Of a stretch of 64,000 nucleotides of DNA, positions 1,445 through 54,400 are shown in pieces. The position numbers and the translations under genes were made by a program. The first letter of the stretch is position 1. Each line of letters begins with the position of its first letter. The notes beneath the pieces are model-generated. The model saw nothing but the letters and a program-made list of their open reading frames with translations. It was not told the origin of the DNA and ran no database searches. This stretch comes from Antedon bifida (taxonomy: Eukaryota; Echinodermata; Crinoidea; Comatulida; Antedonidae), in NCBI GenBank assembly GCA_963402885.1, contig OY727096.1, forward strand, positions 23,603,820-23,667,819. The letters are read 5' to 3'.

Positions 1445-4400
1445 TTAGAATTCCATTTCTGAACGATTGTTGTGTCTAGCCCATAAACGTTTTTCCTGCG
1501 GGGCTGTGCCATCTCCGTTAGCATCGATGCGTTTGAAGCTTCTATGCCGATACACAGCTGAAAAACAAAACAAAAGTCCATCATTGCATTTTTAGATTTT
1601 AGATAATATTTACAATAAACACGAAGAAAGGAAATGAACTAATAAAAATAAAATAAATATAGAGAAAAGTATGTTTAGAAAATCATTTTGAAAGCCAAAT
1701 AATAATAAAATAGTATTTTAAACCAATTCTAATATTTATTTAGCAAGAAAAATTCAATCTCGATATTGTTCGCGAAATAGAGCGACTCGAAAATTAAACG
1801 ATCGCGAAAATTAAACAATCGCGAAAATTATTATTTTGGAAACATTTTGAAACATGGTGGTAAGAGGATTTACAACTAAAGCCTTGATATTACAATGTTT
1901 TAATTAATCAAGAAGTCTGCAGTCGCGTTCGAATTTGTTTATAAATATTTTCTCAAATTCCGGATTTCAATTATAAGAATCATTCGAACTTAAATAACCC
2001 TTTTGTTATAGCAAATCACAATCAACTTCTGTTACCGCACTGGAAAGGTGACTGAATTCAAAACAGGGAAAAGGGTAAGATACGGCGGTAAGTATCCGTA
2101 TTTTTTGTCGTCCTCAAGCTTAACTGCAATCTTGATTCTACATTCACACTGAGGCCACCAGACCCTCAGTGTGAACGTAGCTTTAAGCCTGGTTCCCACT
2201 AGGATGCAACGCAAGGACGTAAGCCGCAACGCAAACGAATTGACTAATCACAATTATGGGCCCTTGGGGGATAAACTTAAAACCTTTAGATATAGTATTG
2301 AAATACTTAGACAATACTGTTAATTCGTATTAACCATTTTTGGTCGCCATTTGAATCGCAAATTTCTTACTTACATATACAAATAAACTTTATTACTGAC
2401 AGTTGCTTCTCAACGTTTATATTAATTAATAATTTTTTAAAAAATAGTTAGTGTAATGTGGATCACAATCACAGATTGACCTTTGTTTAACTTTACGCTT
2501 CAAGTTTCTGACGACGTGGTGAGTTGTGCGCGTAATTAAAGATTTATTACCGTATAGTTTGAAGGAGAAAATCAACTTCATATAAAAATGATTACATAAC
2601 TGATGATTGATGGAATCATTGCATTTACATGACATTTAAAAAATAATTCTTATCAAATAGTTGTATTTGCGAAGTAGGCATACAAAGTGTCCTGTTATGA
2701 AGGGGAGTCCCATAGTAAAACATACCGTATACTCTTGGTTGGTTCTAAACATTTTTCCTTAATGAAATATAAAAATATTTGTTTACTACTCATATTCAAC
2801 TATCGAACATGTATTTTTTTTAAATTTTTACACCTTGAAGAAATTTAATAGAATTTGCCATTCTGAAATCCAGTTTGATTTATATCTAAGTGTATCAAGT
2901 AATTCATTTGCGTTAATGAACCTGTCATCAGTTACAATATCCTTATTATTTCACACACCTGACCTTGTCCAATTTTTCTAAAGAATAATGACATGGCCAT
3001 TGTATAAAATCATTTTGTTAAACCAAATTTGTTGATGTAATATAGCATCATAACATAATGGACGTTTAATCATACAGCAATTAAGTTGAGCTAACTTACA
3101 TAGTATCGAATTATTATTTATGGCATGCTTTTAAAAATATTATTTTTCATATCATCAGAAGAGTAAAAATGAAGATTTCAATGTGATGAAAAATAAACAG
3201 TGAAACGTCTATCATTAGATTTACTCATCGCTATGGATTATATAATATGTCTCTCAAAAACATATTTAAAAGTAATTTATTTCATAAATAGATAATTTAG
3301 AATTCAATTATATAGAAAATGTGTATCTGTTACACTAATATTATATTTCATTTTAATGTATTGAGAATAGGTTTGACAATATAAATACCGATACAACAAT
3401 GATTGAATATCACTGTGCATTATCAATAATACTAACAATAGAGCCTCTTAACGGTTATTTCTTTAATAACATTAGTTTAATTGAAATTGAAATATTTTAT
3501 TTATACTGGGTTAGTTGAAACAAGGGTATCTTTAATAGCCTTGGTTGAAACGAAGAAACGTAAACGAAATGAAATACAGGCAAAGATGTTTTACCTCCAT
3601 GAATCATACCTCATTGTTTTACATTTTCCTTTGTTCATTATTCTGTTTGTTAAGCCGGCGAAATAAATGATATGATCAATAAACGTTTACTGTAACTAGA
3701 TTTGAACTCGTCACCACGAAGAGTTAGTTGAAGCAAGGGTATACTTAATAACCTTGGTTGAAACGAAGAAACGTAACGTTTATGTTGAAATATGGGCAAA
3801 GATTTTGTATGCTTGGTTCCCATTCTAGGACGCAAGGACGTAAACGCAACGCAAACGTGTTACCAATGACAAGCGACAGTTCGAATAATTCATCGCTTGA
3901 ATTGGTCAACTCACTTACGTTGCGTCTACGCCTTTGCGTTGCGTCCTAGTGGGAACTAAGCTTTACCTCCATGATTCAACTACCTAGGTAGAGTTTTTTT
4001 TGTGTTGAGAATTCTTTAATAGTCGAAGCTGGTTACTACTAACCATTTCCCCAAATCTGAAGTTATTGTTTTTTTTATGTTAGTCCACCAATCGGCGTTT
4101 CGATTTTAGTCTACCGGTAGTTAGTTTACGAGCTCAAGTATTATACGTATGAAACGCAATATGTGCCAAAAAAATTATCTTTTACTAATATTAAGTCAAA
4201 CCTACTAACCTTTGCTCCTTCGATTAATGGTATCCAATGCAGTGCGTTTTCTTTCAACGGGTGGTTGGTTGGTCGTGCTGCCGTACAACACCGATTCGTT
4301 ATCATCATCGTAATCCATCACTGAAAGTCCATTTTGCGGTGGTGGTCCAGCTAATGATAAAAAATAAAAATGAATTAATTAAATAGATAGGCAAGTCAAT

Positions 4401-7400
4401 GCTTTGAGATGTGTAATATTTAGTATCATGTTCATGGTGGGACGGACTGAAAAAAGTAAAACATTATTTAGAATTTGGCATTTTGCGGAAGCGATGATAA
4501 GTTATCACAACTCTGATAGTTATAAGCATGCGCAGATGATTGGAACGTTCTCTCATAAGTTTAAGCATGCGCAGATGATTGGAACGTTCTCTCATAAGTT
4601 TATAAGCATGCGCAGAATGACTGGATCTCTATCTAGTACTTCGACGCCTAATAAACAGTTCATAATTCAAAATGATATAGGCCTACCATTTGCCTTATTT
4701 TCGTTTGAAGTTTGCCAACTGTATTTGACTGGAGCTCCCTTGATCCTGTTAACTTCTGCTTGCTGGAGTCTAGCTCGACGGCCTTCGGGGTTTTCACGGT
4801 TCCCATTGGCTACTCGTGAACTGCCTTTAGCCCACATTCGACTTGCCTAATAATCATAAGAAGAATTGTGTTAAATATTATTTTATTTGCTTTCTTAGAT
4901 AAAGGTTAACGTCGTAATTATCAATATGATGTTAATACATACATTAGTCAATGTATCAAATAATAACGCCATTAATAACAAACAACCATAGAAAATGAGT
5001 TTTAAAAAAGAAAAAAAGTAATTTATGACAATAATGAACAAATAGTTCGTAATTATTAACGACAAAAAAAAACAAAATATAATTGACTAAAATTATATAT
5101 TAGGCCTATTACCGATCGTCCCATTTGATTTCTTTCAATGTCGGATGCTTTCCTGAAAATTTGTAAAATTTCGGTTGCGCCTTCAAGAACTGAAATAAAA
5201 CATCATATTAATGTTTTAAATTGAATTAAATAAAATATGAATGCTTTTAATAATAATGTATATATAGACGCTAACGATTGTTGATTTAATGTTAAGTGCC
5301 GTTTATAATCAAACAAGACAAGGTTAAAGCTCTGTCTACACAACCAAACTAGGCCTAGTTTGACAAAAAATGTGTCCAAATATGGTAGTGATATGGCCAA
5401 ATATAGTAGCGATATGACATATCATATATTTTGCCACATAGAGTTTGATAGTGTAGAAAGAACTTAAGGTACTGTATGGTGACGTCAGTTGATACCTTTT
5501 ATATTGTCCATTCTCATTGCTGGTAACACTACAAGAACAATCCAACATGGCGTCTTGGCATCTTCAACTGCGTCTTTCACAAAACTCAGCGCAACAGACG
5601 ATAAGTGGCGAATCCGTGCTCTGTCAACATTCTCTTTACGCGCTTCTAGTGCCAGCTGAACTTTGAACTCTTGAATGTCGAAAATCTTTTAAAATAATAA
5701 AAGGAAATAAGTTCAGTTATCTACAAAGTCAATTTTGCCTATGGGTAACCGTCTTTAGTTTGTAAATTCAAACACGATGAAGCAACTATGTAAGTACATT
5801 GTATGTAACCTTTTTGAGAATTAGGTTTGGAACGGGAGCTTGTCATTGGTCAACTTGTTTGCGTTGCGTATACGTCATTTGGTTGGTTCCTAGTGGGAAC
5901 AAATCTTTTAGCTTGACGTATGCGCAACGCAGGTGAGTTGACCAATCACAAGTGACAATTTGGACGATCCATCGCGTCGTGATTGGTCAAATTACTTGCG
6001 ATGCGCTTACGCCTTGCGTTGTGATCAAATTGGAAAAAGGCTTAAAGAATATTGTATATGCTATGAAACATCAACGAATAAACGTCTATTTCCGTATTAT
6101 TATACGATACACAAAGTCTTTGAAAATGTTTAAGAGTATATTTAAAGTGCTCTTCAGTTGAGAGGAATCGGTGACGGTTGACTTAAGACAAAGTTCAACG
6201 TACATTATTTCTGTTATGATTATGTTTTCACTATTCATAGGCCTAATATTATTAACCATAATAAATTACTGCAATCTAAACATAATTACCTTTAATGGTT
6301 GATTGACTTCTAAATGACCCATATTCTCGACCAGTTCCGGTGAAAGACAATGATCTTGAGGTTCAAAACATCCTTTGACAAACACTTCATTTTTTCCTAG
6401 TCTTGTTGCCCAAACATTGCCTTCCTGATCTACCTCTAGTTGAACTCCTCGCCCTATGTGTGCCCGCACTTTCTCTGTCTGTTGGTCCCGTAACGGGTTT
6501 CGCAGAATACCAAAACCTAGCCTGAAAGGACAATTTTCAAATTTAAATTCAACAAACATTTATTTCATCAAATGCCATAACAAAGCATAAAATAAGGTAT
6601 TATTATTTTATTACAAAAAAGAACAAGTACGAATTTGAAGCACCAGTAATAATGTATAATAAATAATATAATAAAAATGCTTAAACATATTGAAAATAAT
6701 TATATATCTATGTACGACTGCCCCACCTTTTCCGAATATCTAGGTCCACCCATGATTTATGGGTTTATTAATATTAGTCAATGTGTTGCACCTGAAAAAG
6801 CTACAGACATAGACTTATACATGGATCCCTTACGCTACTTTTTTTAAGTGAATCGTTAGGACGAATGCAAATATCACTTGTTATGTAATTGCTCCTATTC
6901 ATGGTAGTTTTATGTCAAACAACCAAAACTGTGTTTCTATTTGCTATAAGTATAAGTGGTGATTATCGGATGATAAACCAATTAAACAATGAAGCGATGA
7001 AGAAAACTAAAAAGAAAGTAAAACGACCACCAGGAAGACCAAAGGATAACTGGATAAACCAAATAAAAAAAAAAGATTTAAAAGGAAAAAAATGTAGACT
7101 TTAGCGCAACAACAAAACCATCCTGCCCAATACAGAAAAGTATGGAAACGAATAAAAAGCGTAATGTCTGAATGACGTAAAATGTTCCAAGAGAGATATA
7201 AGTAGTGTGTTTACCTGCCAGGGTATTGAAATCGGTACCCATCCACAATCAATGTGGGTGATTTTATGCAAAACTCAGTCAGTCTACAATGTTTCTCAAG
7301 GAAGTAAACTTTGGCCCAACAATCATCATCTATGTCGTTAATTTGTGAATACACTTCATCTGTTAGTTCCTGAAAAATAAAACAGTCAATCAATCAATCA

Positions 7401-10400
7401 ATATATCAATCAATAAGTCCATTAATCAATATATTAATCAGTCAATATCAATTAATTAATCAATATATCAATCAAACAATATCAATTGATTAATCAATAT
7501 ATCTATCTATCAATAATAACATTTGATCAATAAATGCATATCAACCAATAAATCCATTGGTCAATATATCAATCAGCCAATCAATTAATTAATCAATATA
7601 TTAATCAATCAATATCAATTAATCAATATATCAATCAATCAATATCAATTAATCAATATATCGAACATCAATATATCAATCAAAATAATCAATAATATAA
7701 TATGAATCAATCAATATATCAATCAATATATCAATTATAAAAAAAAATGTATCAATCAATATTATCAATGTTTTCCTACCTCTTGCATTTTACTTTTCTT
7801 TGTTTTTATGTCTGTTTTGTTAACATTCGGACTTTCGAATTCACCGTAACTCAATCTTTTTGGTTTTCTTGCTGGTACTGGGGCTACTTTCCTGTTCTCA
7901 ATATTTACCCGATGGCGATCAGTTCGTACCTTTAGTTCTCCATACAACATCTGGAATAAGCCAAATGAAAAGGAGGTTATTTATTTTATGTATTTCAACT
8001 TTATTAAGTCATTTGACGCGATGACGTGGGCATTAATAGGTCTATTTATTAAAAGAATTAAAACTTCTTAAAATTAGTCATAAATGCAAGGACAATCGCA
8101 AACTACCGGATCATTCGAACCGTCGCTTTCTGATTGGTCAAATTGCTTGCGTTGTCCGTACGTCATTGCGTTGCATTTCCTAGAGTGGAAATTAAGATTC
8201 AATATTGCCTTATAAAATAATGTATTATGCTAACATCCCTACCTCTCGTTTTCGACTGTCCTGTTTCTTTTGGTCAAGTTTATCTAGCCTCACAAATTCA
8301 GAATGAAATCGATCACCAAGTTGGTGCATCATTTCAAACATCTGCCGCTGTTCTTTGACTTCTTTTCGCCGTTTCGCCAGAATGGTGTGATAACGCCGCC
8401 TTGCCATTCGCCCGCGAACCATTCGTTGACACGTGATCACACGGTCTATCAAGTTATCAAGGATTGAGTCAAGTTGTTCTGTGTGCCAATATTTTAGGAA
8501 TACCTGTGGAAGAAGGTATTTTTTATTATTGATTTAATTTAACATTATTTATAGAGGATGACCCTAAATAGCGTATGCTGACAATCTAAGGGCCCTCATG
8601 ATCAGTTATGATAACTGTCTGTGTGACAGTGTGGCTGTGTGTGTATACTAGTACACCGAGGTAACTCAAAGATGTACTAGGTGCACATGAGCCAGATGTG
8701 TACACAGAAGAGTTGTTCCATGATTATTTGATAATCGTCGTTTCAATTTATTCAGCCATGTCTTACCTTAGTTTTACCAATCTCATAGCCTTCCAATCCA
8801 GCCACTTCAAGGAGTTTCCTACACGCAGATGACGTCATTTTGATGTCTTTTGATGCATTATATGCGATAAACTTATACCTTTAACGAGAGAAAAAAACAT
8901 ATTATTTTGCAGACATATTCAGACGGTCATTGGGTTTAACATTAAAATAATGAATCGGACACCATGAAGGTGAATTGTTGACCAAAAGGAAGATGGAGAT
9001 TGCGTCTGCGATCCTCAAGCCCCATATGAATACCCGTAATTGTTCTTAGATGGGCTGCTAACACTCTTAAACAGTGCTGCAAAAATCGCAGGTTTGATAT
9101 CACGCAGGCGGGGAAAACACAATTATTGGAAGGGCGTTTTATTACGTTGCGTAGGTTACTTTACGTTGGGAACCACGCTTTAAGCTCTGTCTACACCATT
9201 AAACTAGTTTGACAAAAAGTGTGGTGTGCCCAAATATAGCCTAGTAGTGATATGAAATCCTCATGTCCATATATGCGAACATCACATTTTTTGGGTCTCA
9301 TAAAGTTTGATAGTGTAGACAGAGCTTAAGTCTTACAATGTTTTTGAACAATCTAATACCTGCGCAAAAATTCTGCAAATATCAGTCGCGTAGGGTATCC
9401 CTCGCGACGTATGCGAGTAGTTTCTAACACTCCAGTATATCGTAGTTGTCTGACAACTAGTTGAGGCTCAAATGTGTTTGGCTGACTGTACACGTTTGGT
9501 TTGACACAACGAACAAACTGTGGCTCTGCTCCCAACATCTTCTGCATCAGATCAGTCAAAGATTCCTAAAATAAGAAATACAGGTACAGTCAAATACAGT
9601 CAAATAAAACAACAATTTGTTGGTCGATGTTCTGATAAAATTCAATTTGTGTTACTATATCACACTGTATTATTTACTTGGATCCATTGCTCACAAATCA
9701 CACTTTTCAGAGAATTCTTAAACTATAAGTATTTTCTTTAGTGAAACTTACACTACCTTGTAAGTTTCACTATAAGGTTTTGTTATTAATCATGAGAAAA
9801 AAAAGCTCGATTAAGATATCAGTATTATACACTAAATTGTTTTGTGGTATGTTAGGTTACACGAAATAGTTTAATCTAGTTTAGAACATAGCATATGTTT
9901 CTAGGAGAGCCCGTTTATGTAACGACAATATTCCATACTTTCAAAAGATGACAAATACGCACTTTAAGGTCTGCTGTAATATAAATGTGTTCGCTCGAGA
10001 ATACACTCAAACTGATATTCTTTATATCCACCCATATTTCTAAAGCTATCAAACTTTATGTGACAAAAAATGTGATGTGCCCATCATGGACATGATGATG
10101 TCATACCACTACCATATTTGTGCATATCACTACCATATTTGGACACATCACACTTAGTTTGGTAATGTGGACAGAGCTTTATAAACGTATACTGTAATTA
10201 GTCCTAAAGTAATGTTTTCTTACTCTAAAATGCAGGCCACTTGATGCGAGTTGCTTTCGTTTCTTGTCGTCCTTCGCTTTCCCCAATCCTTCTTTCATTC
10301 TGAAATAAAACAATTATACGACTGTTCAATTCATTTGATTCCCAATACAAGCAACATGTTACACGGTTCAAATAGTTTCTTTACCGTGGATTAGCACCAG

Positions 10401-13400
10401 TGATAATCCTATTCCAATCTTAATACACCAGGCTTTAGTCAACAACTCACCAATATGCCTAACACACGTGTAAATATTCAATTTCAGATATTATTCGTAT
10501 TGTTACAAAGAAACGTAAACAAAACCGTAGTAGTAGCCTCTGTCAAAGTCATCCACAGCTGATGGCTTATTTAAGTCGAAATAGAGGAAGTGATCAATGA
10601 CGGTAGGTCTAACACTGCGGAAGTGGCGACACATTTCTGGCACGCATTTACACACGGAAGGAAACGCGTGCAGTAGTGTTTATATATAGCAATTGTTTAT
10701 ATTATCGTTAAAGTTATTTAGCGTTGTATTATACAAATGAATGATCAAAGTTGACATATCACAATCCTTCGTGCTCCACATCCTTATCCCTACTCTGACG
10801 TAATTTATACTTTATACTAAGTATATTGAGAATACCGAGCTTACGCTGATGGCTAAGGGTTAGATTCGAGCCCAAGTAAGCTGCACCTACAAGATTGTAA
10901 TTGTTTGTAACTACTGTGGAGTAGCTTTGCGTCAGGGTGTTGAGTAATTGGTCAGATTGTTGCCCTACTTTGACGTAATTTGCACTTTCGTAATTCGTAA
11001 TATGAATGTATTTTTATGCTAAAATAATGTTCACATAGCTAGTTCGACTATAGGCCTACTCTGTTAATTGCCCCTAGGCCTACCAATACCAGATCACCAG
11101 GTTATGCATTAATAATTTCTGCACACCCAGTCTTTTTTGGAAAGCTTAATACAGAAATATCGAAAGCAGGGTTGAAATTCAGGAGTTGATAACAACTGAA
11201 GGCCAATATTAAACGCATTTTTCACCTTTCAAAAAAGTAATTTCAGTATTTAGAAATTGGCACTGAGAGAGCTAGGCCTACTTACTGTTTCTTGAGTTTC
11301 TTGCCCTGGCTACGTGATATGCTCATTGTCCCGTCGTGGATAATTTTAGTTGGTTTTTTACAGAGTAAGATATCTCGTTGGTTACGAAGAGCTTGTCTTA
11401 CATCTCTGGTAAATATAAATAACATTAAAAAACATAAGACATGGTACTAAGTTGGATTTGTATCATTCCCAGTTGGGTATGCCTGTTATCGATCTTTTAA
11501 TAATTTGACTTAAATGTACTTAGCCTAAACGTAAATGTACTTAGGCTAAACTTAAATGTACTTAGGCTTGCTTATGTACTTAGGCTTGCTTATGTACTTA
11601 GGTTTGACTTAGATGTAGGATAAAACGCTTACTTACTTTTCATTGCCTTGTTCTGAAAACAAAAATTTCACCAAAATGTTGTCACTTTCGCTCATCACAT
11701 CTTGAAGATTTTGGCTAAAAGTGTCACGATTCTTCTCAAGAAATCCGTTTGCGTCATACATAATCTATAACGTAGCAAAAAAAGTAAGTCTATTTATTTA
11801 TTTCTTTATGCAAAGACAAAATACAATAAAAAATAATAAATATTGTAAATTTCTAATAATTTCTAATAACGTTATTATATAATAATAATAATGGTAATCT
11901 TTATAGTGTCTAATACAATGTTTCTAAGCACTGATCTTGTTTTTTTTAAAGATGGTGTTTTAAACCAAAATTCGAACTAGCTGCTTTTGGTGGACAAGGC
12001 AGGTACCCTACCATTATATCATATGCTTACTTACATCTGCTGCGAAGTGTTTGATTCCAAAAACCGACAGTCCGCTATTTTTCTTCGCAGGTTTAATCAC
12101 GTTTGAATGTTTTCCGTGATTTGATATTATTTTGCTGACCAGTGATTTATCTGATGCTTTTGGAAAACGACTTTCTTCATCCAATATTGCGAGTATACCA
12201 AGTGGTTTCTAAATATAAAGGTCGAAGGTCAAATACGGTCAAACAGTATGACAATATACCACAATCAAATATGGCAACACCATTACTATATATGGCAATA
12301 GCGACAATAACAGATAACTATAATTACTTGTCTAGACACAACTTTTCAATCGTTTATCAATGAAAACAAGATCATAGCATACCATAGTGGGAACATGGAT
12401 ATAACATACAACTAATTACCCCAAGAAATAGGTCCAATGTGGCTTGATTATCGGTAAATTTGATGCTAGATTTGGGAATTCCTTCTTGTGAATACTCTTG
12501 TAGTTCCCACGCAAATATACGTTGATTGAAGTAGAATTGAAGTTGTTCGTTGGTTACGTTTATACATAGTTGTTCGTAGCTGTTTTTCTCGAAGTTCTCA
12601 AATCCGTAAATGTCTAAGATTCCTACCTCGCAACCAGGTTGACCCCTGCAAATAGTTTTGTAACATTAAAATATGGAATAGTGTGATTGAAAACGAAAAC
12701 TGTAGCAACGATGGTGCCGAGAATGAATATGTAGATGATGATGTCGGTGATGATTGCAATAATATAAATGTAGGGGATCGGAATAACATGCGACATAACT
12801 GTAGACGACACGTAACACTTTCTTCTCCACTCTAAGGGTCTCTTTATGTCGTACAAACGGCAGTCATTCCAGTCGTCTGTCCAAGACATATGTTAAGATG
12901 GACCAGTACACATGTGTAACCCCCTACTCATAAGATGCACTGGGTTCTTTAATGTACACGAGGACGTTTACGCTGGATTCCTTATCCGATAAGACTTGTG
13001 TTCATAGCGAAAAGTCCATGAAGATGATGAGGATGAAGATGGTGACAAGTACTAATGGTGATAGCGATGATGATGATGTTGATGATGATTATGACGATGA
13101 TGATGATGATAATGATGATGGTGATTATGATGACTTTGTGGATGCTAAAATAAATATGATGATGGACGTTTTCCACTTACGCTTGAGATTCGTCGGGAGC
13201 CAGTAATGTGTTGATTTGACGAACAATCCAACTAAAGAGACGACTGTAGAGGGCTTTGGCGAGAGCATCACGTCCATCTTTGGCTTTGTCCACATTCTTT
13301 AAGGTTAAGATTCGCTCACCTGTAAACAGAATGTGCAATATCATGATAGGCCTAGGTTGTGAACTTAGTAAAATAATTGACAGCTTGTGTCGAATAAATA

Positions 13401-16400
13401 ATCAAATAGATCAAAAGAAGACAACAACAAGTAGTATAATACAGTATAACCTCTATTAAGTGGACACCTTCGGAAACAAATAAATATGGGTTGGGTCGGG
13501 ATAGATGGCCGTACATAAAAAGTTCCCGCTGAATAGGAGTGTCAAATGAATAGGTTAGGTCCGGTGTGTCCCGACGGAAAGGTTCTACTTTACACTGAAC
13601 AAGATAGGTTTTATAAATATAAATTACCTCTAGTTACATTGACGTTCGATATAAGAGCAGTTGCAAGTTCTGTAGTATCAATTGACAGAAGTTGAGATAC
13701 TGAAAAAAAAGAAGGTTACATTTTAAACAAACGTCACAGTGTCGAACGACCTACATCTCGACAGCAACCAAAATGTGTGACGATATAGAGGGCGCACTAT
13801 AATTTAATACCAGATAATTCCAGTAATACTGTTAAACGGTCGATTACATTATGTACCAGCAGTACATGATGCATCTTAATACTTTTTAAAACACTTACCG
13901 ACTTTAAGAACGTACTCATCCACGATATAAGCACCATCGGTATCTTGATCGGTATCAAATTCAATATCAGCAACTTGGACGACAGCTGAGAGCATTGTGA
14001 AAATCATAAGGATGTCCTGTCAACAACAAATTACAATATCACAAATTATATAAATGTTTGCATATTTTCTACGACAAATAATCTGACATATGTGACATTA
14101 TTTACATGCCCACAGCTTCTCTATATGACGTCACCGCGTCAATGTATACATGGCTAATTAATACGAAATATGCATAAGCCTTCTCCGTGATTGAAGGCTG
14201 GTCCCAAAGATGTATCTGTGCTCTAACGTACAGTTGTTTCCTATCCCAGATGACGGCTCCCCCAATGAAAGAGCATTCTTCGATAAGAGTCGCCGCTTAT
14301 GATAGGTCGAATCATTTGCGTAGTTTAAACGCGTAGCTAATGTGAACTAAGCTTAATACGCACATACAGTAATCTATCTTTTTTAATCTAGCACGTGCTG
14401 GGAATTCAATTCACTTTCGATTGACAACATACCTCTGGTGTAAATCCAACCATTTCTAAGATATCTTGAAGCTCATCAAACATCTTCTGGCAGTGAAAGA
14501 AGTCATCTTCACTTTCGTAGATGTGACCTTTTCCGTATTTATTGAGAACCCTGCAAGATGAATTGGTTTAGATTTCATATAAAAAAAAGAAAGTATTACG
14601 ATTCAACTTATTCTTACTGACAAAAGAGGAAGCTATCGATGTGTAATTCTATACTATGAGAGGAGGCACGCTCTCTTTTACAAAAATGCAATATAATATA
14701 ATGTCTTCGCACGTGCTCGTCTTAAGCTCTGTCTACACTATCAAACTAGTTTGATAGTGTAGACAGGGCCATACACAAATTCTATGAAAAATCAAACACC
14801 AGTCATGATATTTTGTGAGTAGGCCTATACGACCTTTTTGGAGTATCCTTACTATGTGTTCAGAGATCTGATATTGATCTCTATTAGAGAGCTGGAAACA
14901 GAAAATATGGCTAATTTGAGGTCCTTTAATATTACTGTGATTTATTAAAGAAATACCTGGCCTGCACTTACCTGTGTTGTTCCGGTGGGCTGAGTAGAAG
15001 ACCTACTAACTGCTGTTCCGTAAGACCCGCAAACATGTAATAAAAGATGTGGAAGTTCTTCTCTCCATTCGACTGATAAATGACTCTTGATTTCTCCAAT
15101 AAATATTGGTCAATCTTTGCTGTAGATAAACGATTCAATACACAGTTAGAATATATGAACCCATTCATCTTGTAGTTATGCTTGGTTCCCACTAGGACGC
15201 AACGCAAGGACGTAAGCGCAACGCAAGTTGACCACTGACGAGAGTGATAGTTGAAAATATCCATCGCTTATATTGGTAAAATCACCTGCGTTGCGCTTAC
15301 GTCCTTACGTTGCGTCTTAATGGGAACCCAGCTTTTTGTCATTACACATTGCCTGAAAGCTCGGTCTACGCTATCAAACTAGTTTGACAAAAAAAAGTCT
15401 GATGTACCCAAATATGGTAGTGATATGCCCAAATATGGTGATATGAAATCATCATGTCCATATTATGAGCACATCACATTGTTGTGGCAAAATAACAGCT
15501 CTCTGGACATCGGCACGATATAAGCTGTCTTGTTTCATTTCACGAATTTGAAAGACAAGTAACTGAAGAACTTGAACCAGTCTCGGATTTTGAAATCGAG
15601 GACCCAAATGGCCTAAATGATGTGCTTAGCTAAACTATCTCTTGCATGTATTTTTGTTTTCAAAGTTTAGGAGGATCCATTTGATCTGCAGTGTACTTTT
15701 AATGATTTTATTATTAAATGTCCATACCTCCTACTATTTGTCCATCATCTGAAAATTTTAGTTCAACGAATTTGCCAAATCGACTTGAGTTGTCGTTCAT
15801 TACGGTTTGTGAGTTGCCAAATGCTTCCAGAAGAGGATTTACCTTGAATAATAATAAACATAAATAATGTATCGAATAATACAATGTTCAGCGTCTTTAC
15901 TTCCAGATCTGATGGTTGCAATCCACAGCCTGTTTGTCTGTATATCCGTGTGTCCCAGTCCATGTTTGACTTTCTTAGTTAAACTTTAACAATTTGTATA
16001 TACAATTTTGTTTTGGGAATTGCAATAAAGTTTCTTATCTATCTATTTATCTACCGTATCTTATCTTTGATACAGAAATCTGGACTACTATTTTTCTTTC
16101 TCTGTGTTAAAATTCCGCTCGAGTGTGAGGGTAGAGGTAAACCATCTATATCTTACTTTAATTCTACTCTATGTTTTTATCAAGCACTAGCCTAATAACA
16201 CGATCTAGATTTTACGCTTGCTACGCATAATATGAATGGTTTACATAATTTAATAATTATGTTATCTGTAATGCATTATTTATTTCTCTCGGTAAAACGA
16301 ATTTCCATAAATTATAAATCTACGGAAATCGTTATCCCATCAGCATTTCTTAATAGGTTCTTTTAACAAATGTTGCTGGTACAACTTAGCAACAAACAGG

Positions 16401-17782
16401 TGTTTTGTTTTGTTGCAATCAAACTCTCATTTCAGCTGAAGGCTGTTTTGATACAGACTACCAAATAACAATGACAATACAGATGATAGATATTATCATA
16501 CGAAAATAAAATATACTCTCATACAACACCAACAAGGAAACAAACAATATTATTAATATATTCTACTTGCATTAATCAAACTCTTTCTAAAACAAATTTG
16601 TTCATGCTTCAATACAGCCTATTACACAATTAATGTAGGCTTACACATATGTTTGTTTTCGTGAAGATAAACTATAACAGAGTCACAACGCATGAAGGGA
16701 CATAAAGCGGACGCGCGCGTACAAAATGCAGCATTAATCATCAGCTTTTGTACGCGCGCGTCTCTTTTATGGTGCGTGTACGGTTTCAGTCATACCTGTA
16801 GAATTTTAGCTTGTAGATTTTGTTTCTGGCTGTTACAGTGACTGATAATATGGCCTATTATGTACTTCGCACTTTCCGTTTTTCCAGCACCGGATTCACC
16901 GCTTATGACGCAACACTGTCTACTGCGGGTCCGCTTCATGTTGCCGTAAGCTTTATCGGCTACCGCGAATATGTGTGGCGGCATCGATTTGCGGTATGTC
17001 AGGTTTGTGTAAGCACATGATAGCTAGAATATAATGAATAAGTTGCGTTTTAATGATAGATTGATTTGTTTTATAGAACTCAAATGCCTCCCAACATCAT
17101 TTTCATCGTCATAATCATCGTCGTCGTCCTATCTATCATCGCCATCATCTTTATATCTATCGTAATAATCATAATTACAATAGATGTATTCATTTTTAAT
17201 ATCGCCTTCATCATCATTCATCTCACGCTGTTTTCTATCATTATACTTACATCGTATGTGTAGATTGACAAGGGCTGATATGGATTCACGGAAATCAAAA
17301 TATCACCAATGTATGTCTGTAAAAAAAAGTCACAACAACTGAATAATGTTTAGACTGGCATACTAGTAGTCAATGCGCAACAGTAGTTACTATAGTTGAT
17401 TACGTATCTACACACTATGTTATGCAGAGGTTTAATGTGCGCATATTAATGTTTTATGTAAAATTTGTACTTGTATATTTATCTATTTCTACGATAATAC
17501 CGTACAATTATACGGAAAATCTGCTATAGCTCGAGATAGAAAACCAGTACAGTATATAAATTGCGGTTAAAGAGGGTTAGGTTTTAATTCTAATGATCCT
17601 GGTGTAAAACAAAGCAAATAACAGGAACTAGAATAGATAAGTGTTTCGTGTTCGTTTTCTAGGCCACTTACATAGATAATATTATTTTCATAACGACGCA
17701 TTAACTCCGCAATTAACGTCTTCTCGTCGAGGGTTGTCAGAACCGTCAGATCGTCAATCAAACCAGTGCTGGCCTGCGCCAT
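1445..17782 (-). CDS. Unconventional myosin (class III-like motor, no kinase) with IQ motif and C-terminal SMAD4-like MH2 domain
   Basis: Complete gene, about 1218 residues, in 25 coding exons in transcript order: 17672-17782, 17251-17316, 16796-17023, 15728-15842, 14972-15119, 14433-14550, 13899-14016, 13628-13699, 13181-13319, 12420-12645, 12035-12208, 11637-11764, 11286-11405, 10224-10299, 9360-9565, 8767-8878, 8243-8503, 7780-7950, 7215-7369, 6290-6521, 5496-5685, 5113-5189, 4687-4846, 4210-4350, 1445-1557 (stop TAA). Every junction is GT-AG and keeps phase. The motor (about 8-720) shows GESGAGKT (101-108), switch [10 protein letters not shown] (151-159), switch II DIYGFE (383-388), the actin-binding FVRCVKPN segment and KVFLKYWH. 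An IQ motif lies at about 741-760, followed by a basic/Gln-rich helix and a linker with [11 protein letters not shown]2 spans about 878-1060. The tail of about 158 residues is low-complexity. The motor resembles class III most by eye, but no protein kinase precedes it. Position 327, 16 residues before DALAK (the TEDS site), is Glu. Likely role: actin-based transport or scaffolding in the cytoplasm. Class assignment and the motor-MH2 join are inferences. Confidence 0.87.
2184..2256. mobile_element. MITE family B, half copy
   Basis: Left half only: CTGGTTCCCACTAGGATGC through ACTAATCACAA. The right half is absent. Confidence 0.65.
3811..3963. mobile_element. MITE family B, full copy
   Basis: Ends GCTTGGTTCCCAT and AGTGGGAACTAAGC in inverted orientation, each followed inward by GACGCAA-rich sequence. 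The inner palindrome is CCAATGACAAG / CTTGAATTGG. Confidence 0.8.
4524..4632. repeat. 39-bp direct repeat, about 2.6 copies
   Basis: The unit begins AAGCATGCGCAGATGATTGG; copies start at 4524, 4563 and (partial, diverged) 4604. It lies in myosin intron 23, just past the exon ending at 4687. Confidence 0.85.
5326..5468. mobile_element. MITE family A, copy in myosin intron 21
   Basis: Left AAGCTCTGTCTACA, right TTTGATAGTGTAGAAAGA. Inside, TTTGACAAAAAATGTG is followed by CAAATATGGTAGTGATATG. It lies 27 nt past the donor of the last MH2-core exon. Confidence 0.75.
5830..6045. mobile_element. MITE family B, rearranged copy
   Basis: Contains GTTCCTAGTGGGAAC, TTGACCAATCACAAGTGAC and GTGATTGGTCAAATTACTTG. 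It looks like two overlapping or nested copies in myosin intron 20. Confidence 0.6.
6980..7160 (+). mobile_element. Probable retroelement remnant (RT C-terminal-like) in a myosin intron
   Basis: The plus strand encodes [19 protein letters not shown] followed by KDLKG and, after a frame change, a degenerate tail. The pattern R-x-x-GRP-x-x-W-x-x-x-I-x-x-D-L is typical of the region after reverse transcriptase in many LINE-type ORFs. Only a short piece remains, antisense to the host gene, in the intron between MH2 exons 19 and 20. Called by eye only. Confidence 0.4.
7380..7760. repeat. AT-rich ATCAATCAATAT-type tandem repeat
   Basis: About 380 nt of imperfect repeats of TCAATCAATATATCAAT in the intron between myosin exons 18 and 19. 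It has no coding content. Confidence 0.85.
8081..8195. mobile_element. MITE family B, degraded copy
   Basis: Retains CTGATTGGTCAAATTGCTTG, a GCGTTGC segment and a decayed right end. It lies between myosin exons 17 and 18. Confidence 0.5.
9181..9330. mobile_element. MITE family A
   Basis: Terminal AAGCTCTGTCTACACC and GATAGTGTAGACAGAGCTTA, inverted, with the family's internal AAATATAG/GTGATATG. Confidence 0.85.
10042..10184. mobile_element. MITE family A
   Basis: Carries CTATCAAACTTTATGTGAC at the left, the double ACTACCATATTTG core, and TAATGTGGACAGAGCTTTA at the right. Confidence 0.75.
11510..11620. repeat. Short minisatellite of ATGTACTTAGGCTTGCTT-like units
   Basis: About five imperfect units of roughly 18-22 nt containing TGTACTTAGG, in the myosin intron 11406-11636. 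Confidence 0.75.
13020..13160. repeat. GAT/GATGAT microsatellite
   Basis: Imperfect trinucleotide tract in the myosin intron 12646-13180. It gives spurious Asp-rich and Ile-rich frames on the two strands. Confidence 0.85.
14724..14771. mobile_element. MITE family A, ends-only relic
   Basis: Only the two terminal inverted repeats remain, meeting at ACTAGT: AAGCTCTGTCTACACTATC then GATAGTGTAGACAGGGC. Confidence 0.8.
15179..15335. mobile_element. MITE family B, full copy
   Basis: Best-preserved copy: CTTGGTTCCCACTAGGACGC at the left, TGCGTCTTAATGGGAACC at the right. It sits about 60 nt from myosin exon 5. Confidence 0.85.
15356..15500. mobile_element. MITE family A, right end decayed
   Basis: AAGCTCGGTCTACGCTATC start and AAATATGGTAGTGATATG core; the right TIR is not recognisable. 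Confidence 0.6.
16701..16771. repeat. Near-perfect inverted repeat with CGCGCGCG arms beside a myosin splice donor
   Basis: Arms of about 28 nt. A perfect 17-bp core, GACGCGCGCGTACAAAA at 16710-16726, pairs with its complement at 16746-16762 around a 19-nt loop, and the outer CATAAA/TTTATG bases also pair. It lies 25 nt past the donor of exon 3, which encodes the P-loop. It may be a miniature palindromic transposon or a structured intronic element. Confidence 0.75.
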
Positions 17783-21199: not shown

Positions 21200-22018
21200 G
21201 TGAAGACGATTATGATGATAGTGACGGCGAGACGACACCATCATTGAATGATGACGGGAGGAGATGTGATGATGATGATTGTGAAGCGAGGCGACACCAT
21301 CATTGAATGATGACGAGAGGAGATGTGATGATGATGATGATTGTGACGGCGAGGCGACACCATCATTGAATGATGACGAGAAAAGATGTGATTATGATTT
21401 ATGATGATTGTGACGGCGAGGCGACACCACTATTGTAATGCTGATGGGAGGAGATGTGATGATGATTTTTATGATTATGATGATAGTGACGGCGAGGCGA
21501 CACCATCATTGAATGATGACGAGAGGAGATGTGATGATGATTATGATAGTGACGGCGAGGCGACACCACCATTGAATGATGACGAGAGGAGATGTGATGA
21601 TGATGTTGATTGTGACGGCGAGGCGACACCATCATTGAATGATGACGAGAGGAGATTTGATGATGATGATGATAGTGACGGTGAGGCGACATCATCATTA
21701 AATGATGACGAGAGGAGATGTGATGATGAATGTGACGGCGAGGAGACACCATCATTGAATGATCACGAGAGATGTGATGATGATGATGATGATGATTGTG
21801 ACGGCAAGGCGACATCATCATTAAATGATGACGAGAGGAGATGTGATGATGATTCATGATTGTGACGGCGAGGAGACACCATCATTGAATGATCACGAGA
21901 GGAGATGTGATGATTTATGATGGTTGTGACGGCGAGGCGACACCACCATTGAATGACGACGAGAGGTGATGTGACGATTATTATGATAGTGACGACGAGG
22001 CGACACCATCATGAAATT
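21200..22018. repeat. Minisatellite, about 60-bp units, Asp-codon rich
   Basis: Over a dozen degenerate units built on GATGACGAGAGGAGATGTGA, GTGACGGCGAGGCGACACC and ATCATTGAATGATGA. Because the unit is mostly a multiple of three and lacks stops, both strands carry a 152-codon open frame (21401-21859 plus, 21399-21857 minus). Neither resembles a protein family, and both are best read as repeat artefacts. Confidence 0.85.
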
Positions 22019-41448: not shown

Positions 41449-43508
41449 TTATAGATCCAGTAGAAACTGGTATACAGATTGCTCTATGCCTTCTTCTTGA
41501 CACGCTTTTACCACATCGCTTATTCTGACGAAATCAGGCGTCGATGACATGCGTTTCCGCCACTTGTTGAAGGCTCCGAACACCTGGTTACGTGCTGAAA
41601 ACTTGTTTTCATTCTTAGCTTGAAAGATCTCTGCATCCGTGACTCCAAGAGATCTGGCAAGACTTTCCCATTCACCTAGTTTTCCTGACAATGTGTTCAA
41701 ATGCTGTTCTGTAAATGTTTTGTTGGGGTTCTTAGCCTGAAATATTAAAAATACAAATATTTTAATAATGCAGTATTATGGAATTTTGTAACTGTGAAAA
41801 AAATTGAAAGTAAAACTATTTAAGAAAATATGTCATAAATGTGTACATATTAAATTTAATTATAATAAAAACAATGTTTTCTGAAAACCAGTTTTGCCAG
41901 CAAGATTTATCAGAATCAATTAGCACCACTCTCTATCAGAATTCAACATGATATTGGAAAATATCAAATGCAAACACTTGACTGGTAAGCCAGACCTAGC
42001 TGGAGGATATATTTTGTCAATTGGATTGATAAAGTACAATATAATTGACAATGTATCTCAATTACATCACAAACAAGGATTTGGTAATTGTCAGAAATTA
42101 ATTTCTTGATTGAAAGAATACTAAAAATATATCATTGTTTACATACTTGTGGTAATGTTTCTTTGACATTTACAGCATTATTGTCACCACTTCCACTTGG
42201 TAGTGGCCTGTCATCTGGCATCTATAAATTGTAGAAAACAAAAATTAAATTGAATGAAATGAAACATGAATTAATGTATGCTTCTGTGAAAATATACATT
42301 GTGCGTTTGGTATTGTATGAACATTCTTGGCCTTAAAATTTGTGGTCTCCAGTGGCGCAACAGCTATGAGCGCTCACTGGCTAAACCCAGGTGCCCCGGA
42401 GCTTATCGGGGCCCCTGAGTAGTATCCAGAGGAAAAAACAGGCATTAAAACATGGCTAAAAACGTTCAAGGCCTTCAGCGTTGGAGGGCCACTTAGGGTT
42501 CCGAAACCAGGGACCTCAGGACTGACGTTACGCCACTGGTGGTCTCTTCATAGAAGGAGGTTCGGCAGAATCAGTTTTTTTTTTTTTTGTGAGAAAACCA
42601 CCAGAGTAAACACTATTGAAGTACATTTTTAGGAAACACACCTCGATAAAGTCTTTTACTTCAACACCCATTGTAATAGACAAATCCTCCATAGTTTTCA
42701 GTATTTCTTGAATACTTGGCCGTAACATTCTATCTGCCTCCCAGCAACCATGCAGCATATCTTTTAACTTAGAGGGCGTTTCCTCATTTAGTGGATACAT
42801 ATTGTCCACCATCTCTGTATCTTGCGGTTTTTGACAAGTCCACATTTCCCAAATCACAACACCGTACGAGTATATGTCCGAACGCGGTGAAACTTTTATG
42901 TGATTTGACCTTTCTTTAAAAAACTCATGATTCTCTGGGGCCATCCATGGTAACGACCCAGCCATGATAGTACTAATTGTCCCATCAGTTATACGGGAAA
43001 TTCCAAAGTCACAAAGTTTCAAATTATATTTATCAGTAATTAAAAGATTTGGAGATTTGATATCGCGGTGAATTATATCATGTTCATGGAGATACTCTAA
43101 TGCGAGGGCGCCTTGACGGGTCCATGTGAAAAATTTGTCATCCTCACGAGGTTGCTGCTGTTTTCGTTTATGGCTTATATAATCTAGTAATGACCCCTTT
43201 GCAGCATATTCCATTATGATACAGTACCAAGGCTCTTGAGTAATTACACCTAAAATCTCTGTTATAAACTTTCTACCAATGTGTTTCTTTCCTTCATCAT
43301 CTTTGATTCTTCTTAATGTAACAAGTTCAATTTCTTGGACACGGTTGAGATGTTTAATCGCAACCGGAAAATTGTCTTTAGTTTTCCAAACGCCTTTAAA
43401 CACGCTGCTTGTTCCACCTCTTCCAATACGTTTTCCAAATTCAATATCATCGAATGGTATTTCCAAAAGCCCTGGAAATGAATCCGTTACTGTTTCATTA
43501 CCTGCCAT
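41449..43508 (-). CDS. TKL-type protein kinase with C-terminal death domain
   Basis: Three coding exons: 42642-43508 (ATG), 42147-42221, 41449-41736 (stop); 409 residues. Residues about 20-280 form a complete kinase: glycine loop GRGGTSSV (29-36), VAIK with Lys52, HRDIKSPN (147-154), DFG (167-169), MAPE and DIYSYGVVIWEMW. The HRDIKSPN and DIYSYGV wording is typical of tyrosine-kinase-like kinases (RIPK, IRAK, TAK1, MLK groups). After a 25-residue linker exon and about 12 more residues, the last about 80 residues read LGEWESLARSLGV, NENKFSARNQ and FNKWRKR, a death-domain pattern. Kinase plus C-terminal death domain is the RIPK1 order, but no RHIM is seen. Probable role: signalling through death-domain adaptors to NF-kB or cell death (inference). 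A 5' UTR intron acceptor lies just upstream of the ATG. Confidence 0.88.
42345..42545. mobile_element. Palindrome-ended insertion in kinase intron 1
   Basis: GTGGTCTCCAGTGGCG at the left and CGCCACTGGTGGTCTC at the right are inverted, enclosing about 170 nt of GC-rich sequence unlike its surroundings. The right end runs to within about 100 nt of the kinase exon. Confidence 0.6.
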
Positions 43509-45472
43509 TGTTATTCATCAGAGAAGGCTATCTGTAAACAAAAACGTGAAAACATTTTTGAATAAATTAATAGTAGGCTAGGCCCTACTACTAGTAGCAC
43601 TATTTTATAATTATTATATATATTATACTGTACTGTATAAAAGAGGTAATTTTCACAAATTTAATTTTTTCCCTACCTGTAATCTTATTAAAACTACTAG
43701 GAAATATTGTTTGTATGTAATATAACAGAAGTATTATTATTTGTGCCTTTACAGGGAATAAAAACTGGAAAGAAATTGCTAGGCCTATCATATTCGAATT
43801 ATCCTTTACATTAGGTCAGCCAAAAATAGCAGGCAAGCCCTGACTGACTGAATCAAAGAATCGGATGTCGGGTGGTAAGACATGACCAAGTAATTTCAGA
43901 CAATTAATTTACTTATTTATAATAATCAATTTAACCAAATAATGATTTAAACTAAATTTACACACGATATCAAATTCAAAACCTTTGATTTTCCCACTTT
44001 TTGGCAAATAATTACCACCGCCCTATTGTTGTTGTTTTAATCTTCCCCCGAACTTCCGCATGAATGTCGCCCTCATGAGATATTCTGTACCGACAGTCTT
44101 TGAGTAAACTATTTATTTAATAGGGGTACAAAATTAAAACTAATTATGCTACGAGTCATTATGAGCTTTCAATTTTAATTATTTATATTATTAATGTTTA
44201 AAAATGTATATGCTTAATATTTATATGTTTTAGAGTATTTAAAATAGAAAAACAAACGTTTGTGCGCCAACTTGTTTAGATTTATCCCCGTCACCAATTG
44301 CTGGTTGTCGCATGGCAACTATTATCAGTGTACAATATGGCCGCGCCGTCGACGAAGGATCGTCCGAGTTTTTATTTCCATTTTTAAGAAGAAGAATATC
44401 AACTAGCCTAGTAGATCTTCGGGGGTGTGTAATAATATTTCAGCTCAATGTGTATTTAGTAGCCTGTAAATATGAGTCTTAGTTTTACAGCTATATATGC
44501 CTAGGCCTAGGTCTGACTAACCAGGCCAGGGTGCCAGGGCCCGGGGGCTAAGCTAGCCTAGCTATATGCCCTACTAGGCTAGGCCTAGGCTACTACTAGC
44601 TCGCGAGAAGCACCCTACTACTTGGCCTAGCCTAGCTGGTGGGCCTAGGAGAAGGAGGTCAGGATAGATATAGGCCTACTACAGGGGAAAACAGACGACC
44701 GGGACCACGAACGATTGGGCCCAAAACAAAGTGTGAGAGATCGGGCCCACCCAGCCTGCCCAGCCCAGTCCCAACCCAGACGATCAGGCCCAACAAATAA
44801 AACGATTGGGCCCAAATCGGTCACGTTTATTTGGAATTTTTTATGGCTATTTTTTTTCTATAGGCCCATCTTTTTTCACTTTGACCAAAAGTTGGACCGA
44901 AAACAACATTATTTACCTGAAAATACTATAATTTAAAGCAAAAAAAGTCAAATTGACTGAGTCAATGAGTTTTTGGTTGAATTTACAATTCGTCATTTAC
45001 AAATAATTACTGACACCGTGGTGCGTCAAAAAACTTAGATGCTACATCACATCAATGAACAATGGTGTGTCAATGTCTGTCACTTTACCACCCACAATAT
45101 CATAAAATAAACAACATGGTCTCAGTACAGTGTGTCAAAATGGTGCGTTATAGTCACCTAAAAAGGTAATTAACATTTTTGATGCACAGGTACGTCATGA
45201 TATTCATAAGGTATGCCGCACATTGGACAAATGACACACCTCTCCGGGGGTCGTATAGTGGGTCATACAATTGACAAGTGCATTACAGTGTAAGGTTTTC
45301 TATCCAATTTTTGGTCATTTTTGGTATTTGTTATTATAGTAGAAAAATATGTCTATGGTCTTAACTTATTATTTATAGAGTCAAGTCCTACAGTAGGTAG
45401 CGAAAATTGTTCGTGTAAAAACACAGCACTAATTTGTAGCAAACTTACACTTACAGGCCAACATAAGCCAAC
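43509..45472. promoter_or_regulatory. Head-to-head intergenic region kinase / DLEC1
   Basis: Divergent promoters are expected here. GGTTGTCGCATGGCAAC at 44303-44319 contains a perfect CATGGCAAC half of an RFX X-box. AATATGGCCGC at 44334-44344 resembles a YY1/initiator site. A DLEC1 untranslated exon probably starts near there and splices to the acceptor CTTACAG ending about 45457, 16 nt before the ATG. A dense TAGGCCTA cluster covers 44490-44680. Confidence 0.45.
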
Positions 45473-51400: not shown

Positions 51401-54400
51401 TGACAGTTACTCAATTTAAAACTTTTAAAATTATCAAGTGAAAGAAAAAAATTCTTAAGCTCTGTCTTTACTATCAAACTGTGCCCAAATATGGTAGTGA
51501 TATGACATAATCACGTCCATATATGGACATTTTTTTGTCACATAAAGTTTGATAGTGTAGACAGAGCTTTAGTTTAGTTATATTGATATAGAAAGGAAGG
51601 ACTGACCCTGTTGTGTGCCCATTGCCACTACATTCTACACTACTTTTCAAATCATTTAAGGACAATACACTGAGGTGCAATAAGTAACAAGTGAAACCAT
51701 TTACAATAGCATATGTAGTATGTTTATTATGTTTCCATAGAAACGTACCACTATCCTTTTCATGGGACATGTTCAAGCCAAGTTTAGAATGTCCAAAAGC
51801 AGGGATGACATCATCAGCAAGCGATGGTCAAGTAATTGGCAGATTGCGAGATGGTGGAGGTCACTACTGTATCGCACCGGATCAAGGCACTCTGTCACCT
51901 AATGCAATCAAAGAATTTATTGTAGGATTCTCTCCAGATACGGTAAGCACTTGATAATTTTTTAAATAGATAGTTCTTTCTCATATTACTGTCTGTATAT
52001 GTTAATATCAAACTTATATTCATGTTGCTGAAAGAATGCATATTATGTTTTAGTAGTATTATTAAATGTTTTCATTGATGTGGGATATAAAATAAGTAAA
52101 TAAAAAGAAATGACAGGACCCAATTTTAATATTTTATATTATGTTTATGTTTATGATTTTTTTCCTAATTGAAGTATCCATTTTTTTATAGATTGGTTCA
52201 TTTCATAATGTTGCCCATTTAGTTCTTCATGGCATACCAGTTATCAACGAACCTAAGCCACTGTCAGGAAAAGCAAATAAATGGAATGGAAATGGAACCA
52301 AAAGCTCATCAGCCTCCACCAGAGAGCTGACTACTAAGGATTTAGTAGGCCTAGAGGTTGAACTTAAGGCAAAGTGTGATGCGTACCATGTGTTAGTGCA
52401 ACCATATGCTATCATAGTGCCTGGTAGTACCTTAGTTACTACAACTATTAGAAAACATTTTCAGGTACATTTGTTACTTTTACCATTTTCCATACTAAAA
52501 CCTGTTGTTGGAATTTAAACAAGTAGCCATTGTACCAGCCAGCCATATTGATATAAAATTACTTTCATTTTTTAGATGGTCAACTTTAGCCAGTACCCAG
52601 TAATATTCCAATGATCATCTTTGATTTGTGAATGTGGTATCAAAGAATCTTGTTAAAAAGTAGCTACTTCGTCAAATTCATACATACATTAATAATTTTC
52701 CATTTTTCAGATGGTCAACTTTAGCCAATACCCAGTAACATTCAGTTGGTCATCTTTGAGTGACTGTCATATTGTAGAGGTTGGAACTCCCCAAGGTATC
52801 ATTCCTGCTGGAGAAGTTGCTGACTTGAAGCTTACCATTACTGGTGGACAGCCTGGCCTAATTGACCACACACTGATTTGTAAGATTGAATACCAAGATG
52901 AGCCGCTTATGCTTCGAGTGAGGGCGCACATCAAGGTAATAATTTTCTTGGAGATAATTTATCAACCTTACTATTAAAATCTGGTTGGGAAAGTTAATGT
53001 CTTTGTATAAAGGGTCTTCCACACCTGTTCCGGCACGGGTCTGGTCTGGCGATTCAAACGCCAATGTTTCGTTTTCACGACACTCCACGCAGTTATGCAC
53101 CAATTGATATGAGGGGAACGTGAAAACGAAACATTGACATTCGATTGGAATTGCCGAACCACAACCATGCCGGAACAGGTGTGAAAGACGCTTTACTGTG
53201 ACACAAATTCTCTAGGGTCAATGAAGTTGTAAAGATACACAGTAGTAATTTATTTATTGTACAGTAGTTCTTGGAAAGTATTCTTAAATATAATTGTACC
53301 TTCAATAGGGTCCAGAGGTAGTAATTGACACCCCATCAATTGACTTTGGTCTTGTTCGGAATAAGTATGAAGTAACAGAAGAAATTGTGATTAGGAATAC
53401 ATCGCAGATTCCAGCAAAATGGAGTATAGAGGAAAGTAAAGATCATCTAGATACAGAACTGAATGATGTAAGACTGTTTATCTTTATCAATTTATCTTTG
53501 TCCTTGTTTGATAATCCATTTGCTGCTCAAACAAAGATTTCGGTAAAATCTTATGCAGTATTAGATATATAATTTTGGTATTTGGTAGTCATTATAAATG
53601 TTTTTTTTTCTCCCAGGGTATGTCAGAGTTTTTATTTAGGCCATCCAGTGGTGATTTACCAGGATTGGGTTCTACTGTCATCACGGTGACCTTTAACCCT
53701 TCTCACTGCAGACACCTTAGATCAGTCTTTGAATGCTCCGTCATTGGTGGTATATCAAGGTAAATGAGCACTATCTATAGTTTTTACTAATATACCATAA
53801 CATCTCCCAGTTTAGCATCATTTTGAGGGAACAATGCACCAAAAAGGCCCCATCTCGAAAAAAAGCCCCCTCTTCGGTCTGCAAAATTAATCTCGAAAAG
53901 AAGCCCATCTTAAAAGAAGCCCACCCAAGAGTACTAAATGGGATTCTTATTGATGTTTTACACTATGTACGTAATACAATCAACTCTCACAATATCAAGA
54001 CTCTCTGTTAACTAAACGTTTCTTCAGGTCCCAAATTCTATTTATACCATTAAAACCCCGGATTTCCGGAAAGAGAGTGTTGAATGTTCATGTTGATGTT
54101 GTCTTGTATTTGTTTCCCTATTATTGTATTGTTTTTATGAGCATCTCGAATAAAGCCAATCAATCAATATCCCAACTGTTTATTTCTTGATACTAACATT
54201 TGTTTGTGATCATTTTAAGCTCTGTCTACACTATCAAACTTTATGTGACAAAATGATGTGCCCATATATGGACATGATGACATCACTACCATATTTGTGC
54301 ACATCACACTTTTTTTTGTAAAACTAGTTTGATAGTGTAGACAGAGCTTTACAAATTCAAACTTTCGAGAAGAATCTTTTGATGAATGAATATTTGATAT

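What the first reader, a model, noticed from the sequence alone, without database searches (positions are those of the whole stretch)
4210..17782. Myosin motor apparently fused to a SMAD4-like MH2 domain
Exons 1-17 encode a full motor plus IQ; exons 19-22 encode an MH2 domain, and all intervening junctions are phase-consistent GT-AG. The intron between exon 17 and exon 18 is only 292 bp, leaving little room for a terminator and new promoter. Established: MH2 is the SMAD oligomerisation/receptor-tail domain, and no human myosin carries one. Inference: an actin motor or scaffold with a SMAD-like adaptor, perhaps linking TGF-beta/BMP components to actin. Caution: exon 18 starts with ATG straight after its acceptor, so a separate downstream transcript is possible.
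Basis: partly seen in the sequence, partly recalled or inferred. Interest (0 to 1): 0.87.

Follow-up and report, generated by a model that had tools for sequence, protein, structure and literature searches.

The report
Feather-star myosin with Expansion-type MH2 tail

Summary
The fusion is real and is one gene: 25 minus-strand exons, 17782 to 1445, 1218 aa, aligning ungapped to a predicted Antedon mediterranea protein with 11 substitutions. Pfam finds Myosin_head and MH2. The architecture is in print as class-80 myosin of echinoderms and hemichordates (PMC5583752) and, earlier, in a choanoflagellate and a sponge (PMC3942036). The SMAD4/TGF-beta reading is not supported: the MH2 scores higher against Expansion than SMADs and its L3 loop is six residues short, as in Expansion (PMC4388265), whose domain is reported unfit for SMAD-like trimers. 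Raw identity does not separate the two. In MH2 trees arthropod Expansion falls with lophotrochozoan MH2 myosins (98/97, 98/99), but AU tests do not reject one myosin group (p 0.155, 0.146). My mechanism, an actin motor whose tail organises apical membrane or matrix-export complexes, is inference by homology; I had no expression, localisation or binding data. Interest is moderate: known architecture, with a link to Expansion/Rebuf that I did not find in print.

The parts
1445..17782 (-). whole gene, 25 coding exons, 1218 aa
   Evidence: single open frame, 24 introns all GT-AG, 1218/1218 ungapped to P0001
17672..17782 (-). exon 1, start codon, motor N-terminus
17251..17316 (-). exon 2, motor
16796..17023 (-). 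exon 3, motor, P-loop GESGAGKT (aa 101)
15728..15842 (-). exon 4, motor, switch [10 protein letters not shown] (aa 151)
14972..15119 (-). exon 5, motor
14433..14550 (-). exon 6, motor
13899..14016 (-). exon 7, motor
13628..13699 (-). exon 8, motor
13181..13319 (-). exon 9, motor, TEDS-site Glu 327, DALAK
   Evidence: the TEDS rule is recalled
12420..12645 (-). exon 10, motor, switch II DIYGFE (aa 383)
12035..12208 (-). exon 11, motor
11637..11764 (-). exon 12, motor
11286..11405 (-). exon 13, 40 aa in the loop-2 region (placement recalled); frame stays open with or without it
   Evidence: present in P0001
10224..10299 (-). exon 14, motor
9360..9565 (-). exon 15, motor
8767..8878 (-). exon 16, motor
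8243..8503 (-). exon 17, end of motor and lever with one loose IQ match (aa 743)
7780..7950 (-). exon 18, basic linker; opens with an internal ATG
7215..7369 (-). exon 19, stretch upstream of MH2 and start of MH2
6290..6521 (-). exon 20, MH2 core
5496..5685 (-). exon 21, end of MH2 with short L3 loop
5113..5189 (-). exon 22, tail after MH2
4687..4846 (-). exon 23, tail, first post-MH2 WAK motif (aa 1086)
1445..1557 (-). exon 25, C-terminus with WAR motif (aa 1207) and stop

Best explanation
It is a crinoid class-80-type myosin: a myosin-III-like actin motor with intact nucleotide-binding signatures, a lever with one loose IQ match, a basic linker and an MH2 domain of the Expansion/Rebuf (N-alpha-MH2) type near its C-terminus. 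Shown: gene structure, domains, relatives, short L3. Inferred from homology: the motor works on actin, and the MH2 acts as a monomeric protein-binding module, not a SMAD-style trimer, that recruits or spaces partners at the apical membrane, perhaps complexes that make or export extracellular matrix.
For: One frame, 25 exons; Myosin_head and MH2; P-loop, switch I, switch II, acidic TEDS residue. MH2 best solved match 4r9p, E 2.8e-28, against 6.8e-11 for the best SMAD (Mad) and 8.4e-11 for SMAD4. Core-only profiles favour Expansion over SMAD in 13 of 13 myosin rows tested (of 29 held), window 106.4 against 74.2 bits. L3 spacing 7-9 residues in 29 of 29 myosin rows, 8 in 120 of 120 Expansion-type rows, 14 in 4 of 4 SMADs. 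In a bivalve relative the model has a helix at 840-850 before the first MH2 strand at 861, pLDDT 70-92 by blocks over 841-1040. Passages: the Expansion domain elutes as a monomer and its helix would clash with a SMAD-like trimer (PMC4388265); it is needed for chitin translocation in the fly (PMC9894549, section 2.1).
Against: I found no functional data on a class-80 myosin. Raw identity of the window MH2 to SMAD4 (33.3%) is not below that to Expansion (mean 30.2%, highest 34.5%), and Glandiceps is closer to each of the four SMADs (23.9-32.1%) than to Expansion (21.8%). BLAST to Expansion reaches clearly upstream of the conserved Trp in 21 of 29 database rows, not in 8, starfish among them. Short L3 could be ancestral. 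Expansion's CM2, DPYYCG in 115 of 120, is in none of P0001-P0120. The fly study finds no support for a physical Kkv-Reb interaction. One paper calls Ciona and sea urchin non-chitinous (PMC1945033), so chitin itself may not be the cargo.
Confidence: 0.6

Rival explanations
1. The tail is a SMAD-like adaptor that ties TGF-beta/BMP components to actin.
For: MH2 family match; 33.3% identity to SMAD4 in the aligned core.
Against: Short L3, no MH1 match, no C-terminal SXS, higher Expansion scores.
Confidence: 0.07
2. Two adjacent genes: a motor ending in exon 17 and an MH2 protein starting at the ATG of exon 18.
For: ATG directly after the acceptor; 292-bp intron.
Against: Phase-consistent junction; same joined protein in P0001-P0008 and in relatives named from echinoderms, hemichordates, molluscs, a brachiopod, an annelid and a sponge, nine unnamed or unplaced ones on transcript-sized contigs.
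Confidence: 0.03
3. The MH2 only inhibits or dimerises the motor and carries no cargo.
For: Long predicted helix 704-787 in P0080 and a basic linker leave room for regulation.
Against: Motor-MH2 contacts were not examined; recurring motifs after MH2 hint at further partners.
Confidence: 0.2

Closest known systems
Class-80 myosins (Kollmar and Muehlhausen 2017, PMC5583752; passages read)
   Same: C-terminal MH2, Ambulacraria, nearest named motors of class 3 type
   Different: No sequence carrying the class-80 label was compared. My quick motor tree puts ambulacrarian and lophotrochozoan forms together (SH-aLRT 98), whereas that paper reports the lophotrochozoan ones polyphyletic; I had no class-36 motors
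MH2 myosins of Salpingoeca rosetta and Oscarella carmela (PMC3942036; passages read)
   Same: myosin III-like motor with C-terminal MH2
   Different: sequences not compared here
Drosophila Expansion/Rebuf (PMC4388265 passages; PMC9894549 abstract, passages and section 2.1)
   Same: short L3, higher profile scores, match reaching upstream of MH2 in the window
   Different: no motor in Expansion; CM2 absent from the myosins; Rebuf not compared separately
SMAD MH2 (PDB chains)
   Same: MH2 fold family
   Different: L3 six residues longer; MH1 and SXS (recalled and PMC4388265)
Myosin III
   Same: closest named motors outside MH2 myosins include class III; database name myosin-IIIb-like
   Different: no kinase domain match here

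Membership tests
class-80 myosin | myosin motor plus C-terminal MH2 | tested here: met
class-80 myosin | occurs in echinoderms/hemichordates and groups with them by motor | tested here: met
   quick tree, 31 rows, SH-aLRT 90 for the ambulacrarian group; no labelled class-80 sequence in the set
Expansion/Rebuf | MH2 with added N-terminal helix | tested here: inconclusive
   window alignment covers the stretch, 21 of 29 database rows do; helix in the P0080 model, crinoid not modelled
Expansion/Rebuf | short L3 loop | tested here: met
Expansion/Rebuf | CM2 motif | tested here: not met
   string DPYYCG; P0001 stands for the window
Expansion/Rebuf | no motor domain | tested here: not met
SMAD | MH1 domain | tested here: not met
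   E up to 0.001
SMAD | full-length L3 and C-terminal SXS | tested here: not met
SMAD | phospho-dependent trimer | not testable with these tools
   needs biochemistry
myosin III | N-terminal protein kinase | tested here: not met

The most novel reading that the evidence does not exclude
Arthropod Expansion/Rebuf, the regulators of chitin export, descend from the tail of an MH2 myosin that lost its motor; MH2 myosins of echinoderms and molluscs keep the older form, in which an actin motor itself places matrix-exporting complexes at the apical membrane.
Probability: 0.25. Interest if true: 0.72.

Novelty: new member of a known kind. Interest (0 to 1): 0.42.

Why it matters
It corrects a tempting SMAD reading and ties a little-studied myosin class to proteins with a tested role in chitin export. 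If the descent holds, it would explain where Expansion came from and give a testable function for class-80 myosins in sea urchins and sea stars.

Tried and rejected
Rejected: WAK motifs after MH2 as Expansion's CM2; I take CM2 to be DDPYYCGL from the primers and P0121 (inference). Rejected: shared SRR...LDQTF stretch of Lingula and fly Expansion; shuffle p 0.0035, but LDQTF is in 21 of 120 Expansion-type rows. My first gene model of 21 exons and 1063 aa skipped exons 13, 22 and 23 and the true end; searches used it or its tail. protein 1 joined exon 20 and exon 19 in the wrong order, with some intron letters, and is superseded. One search stopped with an error. The L3 regex miscounted and was replaced by alignment columns. 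The Expansion-type model had mean pLDDT 43.6 and was not searched. Foldseek on the P0080 model showed 50 of 403 matches, all motors or motor fusions, and the A3 profile search showed 60 of 176, again motor chains, so neither bears on MH2. I did not establish whether echinoderms have chitin synthase. P0024 was left out of the MH2 trees; it is the one row counted at 7 and it lacks PCW.

In searches I saw no paper joining MH2 myosins to Expansion (listings; open-licence PMC only). One search listed 7 papers with three of four terms; by its counts none holds all four.

Full report
What is there. The minus strand holds one gene of 25 coding exons, 17782 to 1445. All 24 introns are GT-AG and the frame is open to a single stop, giving 1218 aa. 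It aligns over 1218 of 1218 positions without a gap to P0001, an NCBI prediction named myosin-IIIb-like isoform X2 of Antedon mediterranea, with 11 substitutions. The window is thus probably from a feather star of or near Antedon (taxonomy); the species is not settled. Pfam gives Myosin_head at E 2.6e-213 and MH2 at 5.9e-27 on the shorter first model, and the same pair on P0001.

One gene. In one search that Met is invariant in 10 rows that continue from the motor. In one search, 28 of the 120 listed proteins (of 7954 hits) carry both Myosin_head and MH2; the named ones come from echinoderms, hemichordates, Lingula, Liolophura, Owenia, four bivalves and the sponge Corticium (groups recalled). 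Nine of the 28 have a longest contig of 3.3-5.5 kb, which I take for transcripts; that is inference. P0009 of Anneissia lacks most of MH2, perhaps an annotation gap.

Known kind. Kollmar and Muehlhausen describe class-80 myosins with a C-terminal MH2 in echinoderms and hemichordates and mention lophotrochozoan orphans of the same architecture (PMC5583752, passages). Sebe-Pedros and colleagues report MH2 myosins in a choanoflagellate and a sponge (PMC3942036, passages). So the architecture is not new. The Expansion paper's abstract says that only Smads and Expansion contain MH2, so it did not count the myosins.

Which MH2. The best solved match is 4r9p, E 2.8e-28 over 43-254 of the tail, against 6.8e-11 for Mad and 8.4e-11 for SMAD4. 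The chain is named RE28239p; that it is Expansion I recalled, and its letters nearly equal P0121. Part of that lead comes from the longer match. On the core alone, 13 of 13 myosin rows tested (of 29 held) score higher with a four-row Expansion profile than with a four-row SMAD profile, the window by 106.4 to 74.2 bits; the SMAD rows are few and close. Against this, raw identity of the window is 33.3% to SMAD4, 28.6-30.1% to the other SMADs and 30.2% on average to 120 Expansion-type rows; Glandiceps is nearer to each SMAD than to Expansion. L3 spacing is 8 in 26 of 29 myosin rows, 9 in two and 7 in one, 8 in 120 of 120 Expansion-type rows and 14 in 4 of 4 SMADs. The Expansion paper gives 17 for Smads and 11 for Expansion, the same difference. 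The BLAST match to Expansion starts well upstream of the conserved Trp (its position 33) in 21 of 29 database rows and at 27 or later in 8.

Trees. With four SMADs as outgroup, 12 of the 120 Expansion-type rows fall in a clade with lophotrochozoan and unnamed MH2 myosins, support 98/97 with 44 rows and 98/99 with 38 rows, where Corticium and five unnamed rows were dropped; both runs warned of long branches that meet. Inside that clade Expansion sits next to Lingula and Owenia at 82-87 without a star. None of 200 bootstrap trees in either run has the myosins as one side. Yet holding them together is not rejected: p 0.155 and 0.146; ambulacrarian myosins plus Expansion p 0.093. Descent of Expansion from a myosin tail is therefore suggested, not shown. 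In a quick motor tree of 31 rows, 16 bilaterian or unnamed MH2 myosins group at SH-aLRT 98, with Corticium outside; all 17 at 78. Class-36 chitin-synthase myosins were not in that set.

Structure. Structure prediction takes whole returned proteins, and P0001 exceeds the 1200 aa it states for a single protein, so I modelled the bivalve P0080 (1199 aa, 23 rows). Mean pLDDT is 69.5; blocks over 841-1040 run 70-92, with a helix at 840-850 before the first MH2 strand at 861. This is a relative, not the crinoid.

How it most likely works. The motor signatures and acidic TEDS residue (the rule is recalled) point to an active actin motor. Expansion's domain is reported as a monomer whose helix would block SMAD-like trimers and as needed for chitin translocation but not for localisation, with no support for physical interaction of Rebuf with the chitin synthase. 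By analogy, the myosin tail would recruit partners at apical actin. That the cargo concerns matrix export is a guess, weakened by a report that treats sea urchin as non-chitinous.

Noticed in passing
window 42528-43514 (-): Single open frame of 328 aa with a protein kinase domain (PK_Tyr_Ser-Thr E 1.7e-43).
   Followed up: partly
window 54328-59692 (+): Several exon-like frames; one matches DLEC1 sixth Ig-like domain (E 3e-08), another weakly, below cut-off, CFAP65/HYDIN-like Ig domains. Perhaps a cilia-associated gene.
   Followed up: partly
window 21398-21881: Repetitive stretch open on both strands (153 and 160 aa), acidic on one strand and His/Ser-rich on the other; perhaps a tandem repeat, not a gene.
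   Followed up: no
window 7370-7779: The intron between exons 18 and 19 is largely a degenerate TTGATTGATATA-type repeat.
   Followed up: no
window 2183-2224, 3872-3964, 5845-5908, 15175-15335: Dispersed direct and inverted copies of a short repeat in introns, perhaps a small transposable element.
   Followed up: no
aa 1086 and 1207 of the protein (exons 23 and 25): Two W[AS][KR] motifs after MH2. The C-terminal one is in 25 of 29 rows (P0009 counted), sponge included; the first is missing in the sponge and Owenia rows.
   Followed up: partly
window 11286-11405 (exon 13): A 120-bp exon in the motor keeps the frame if skipped, so it could be alternative.
   Followed up: no
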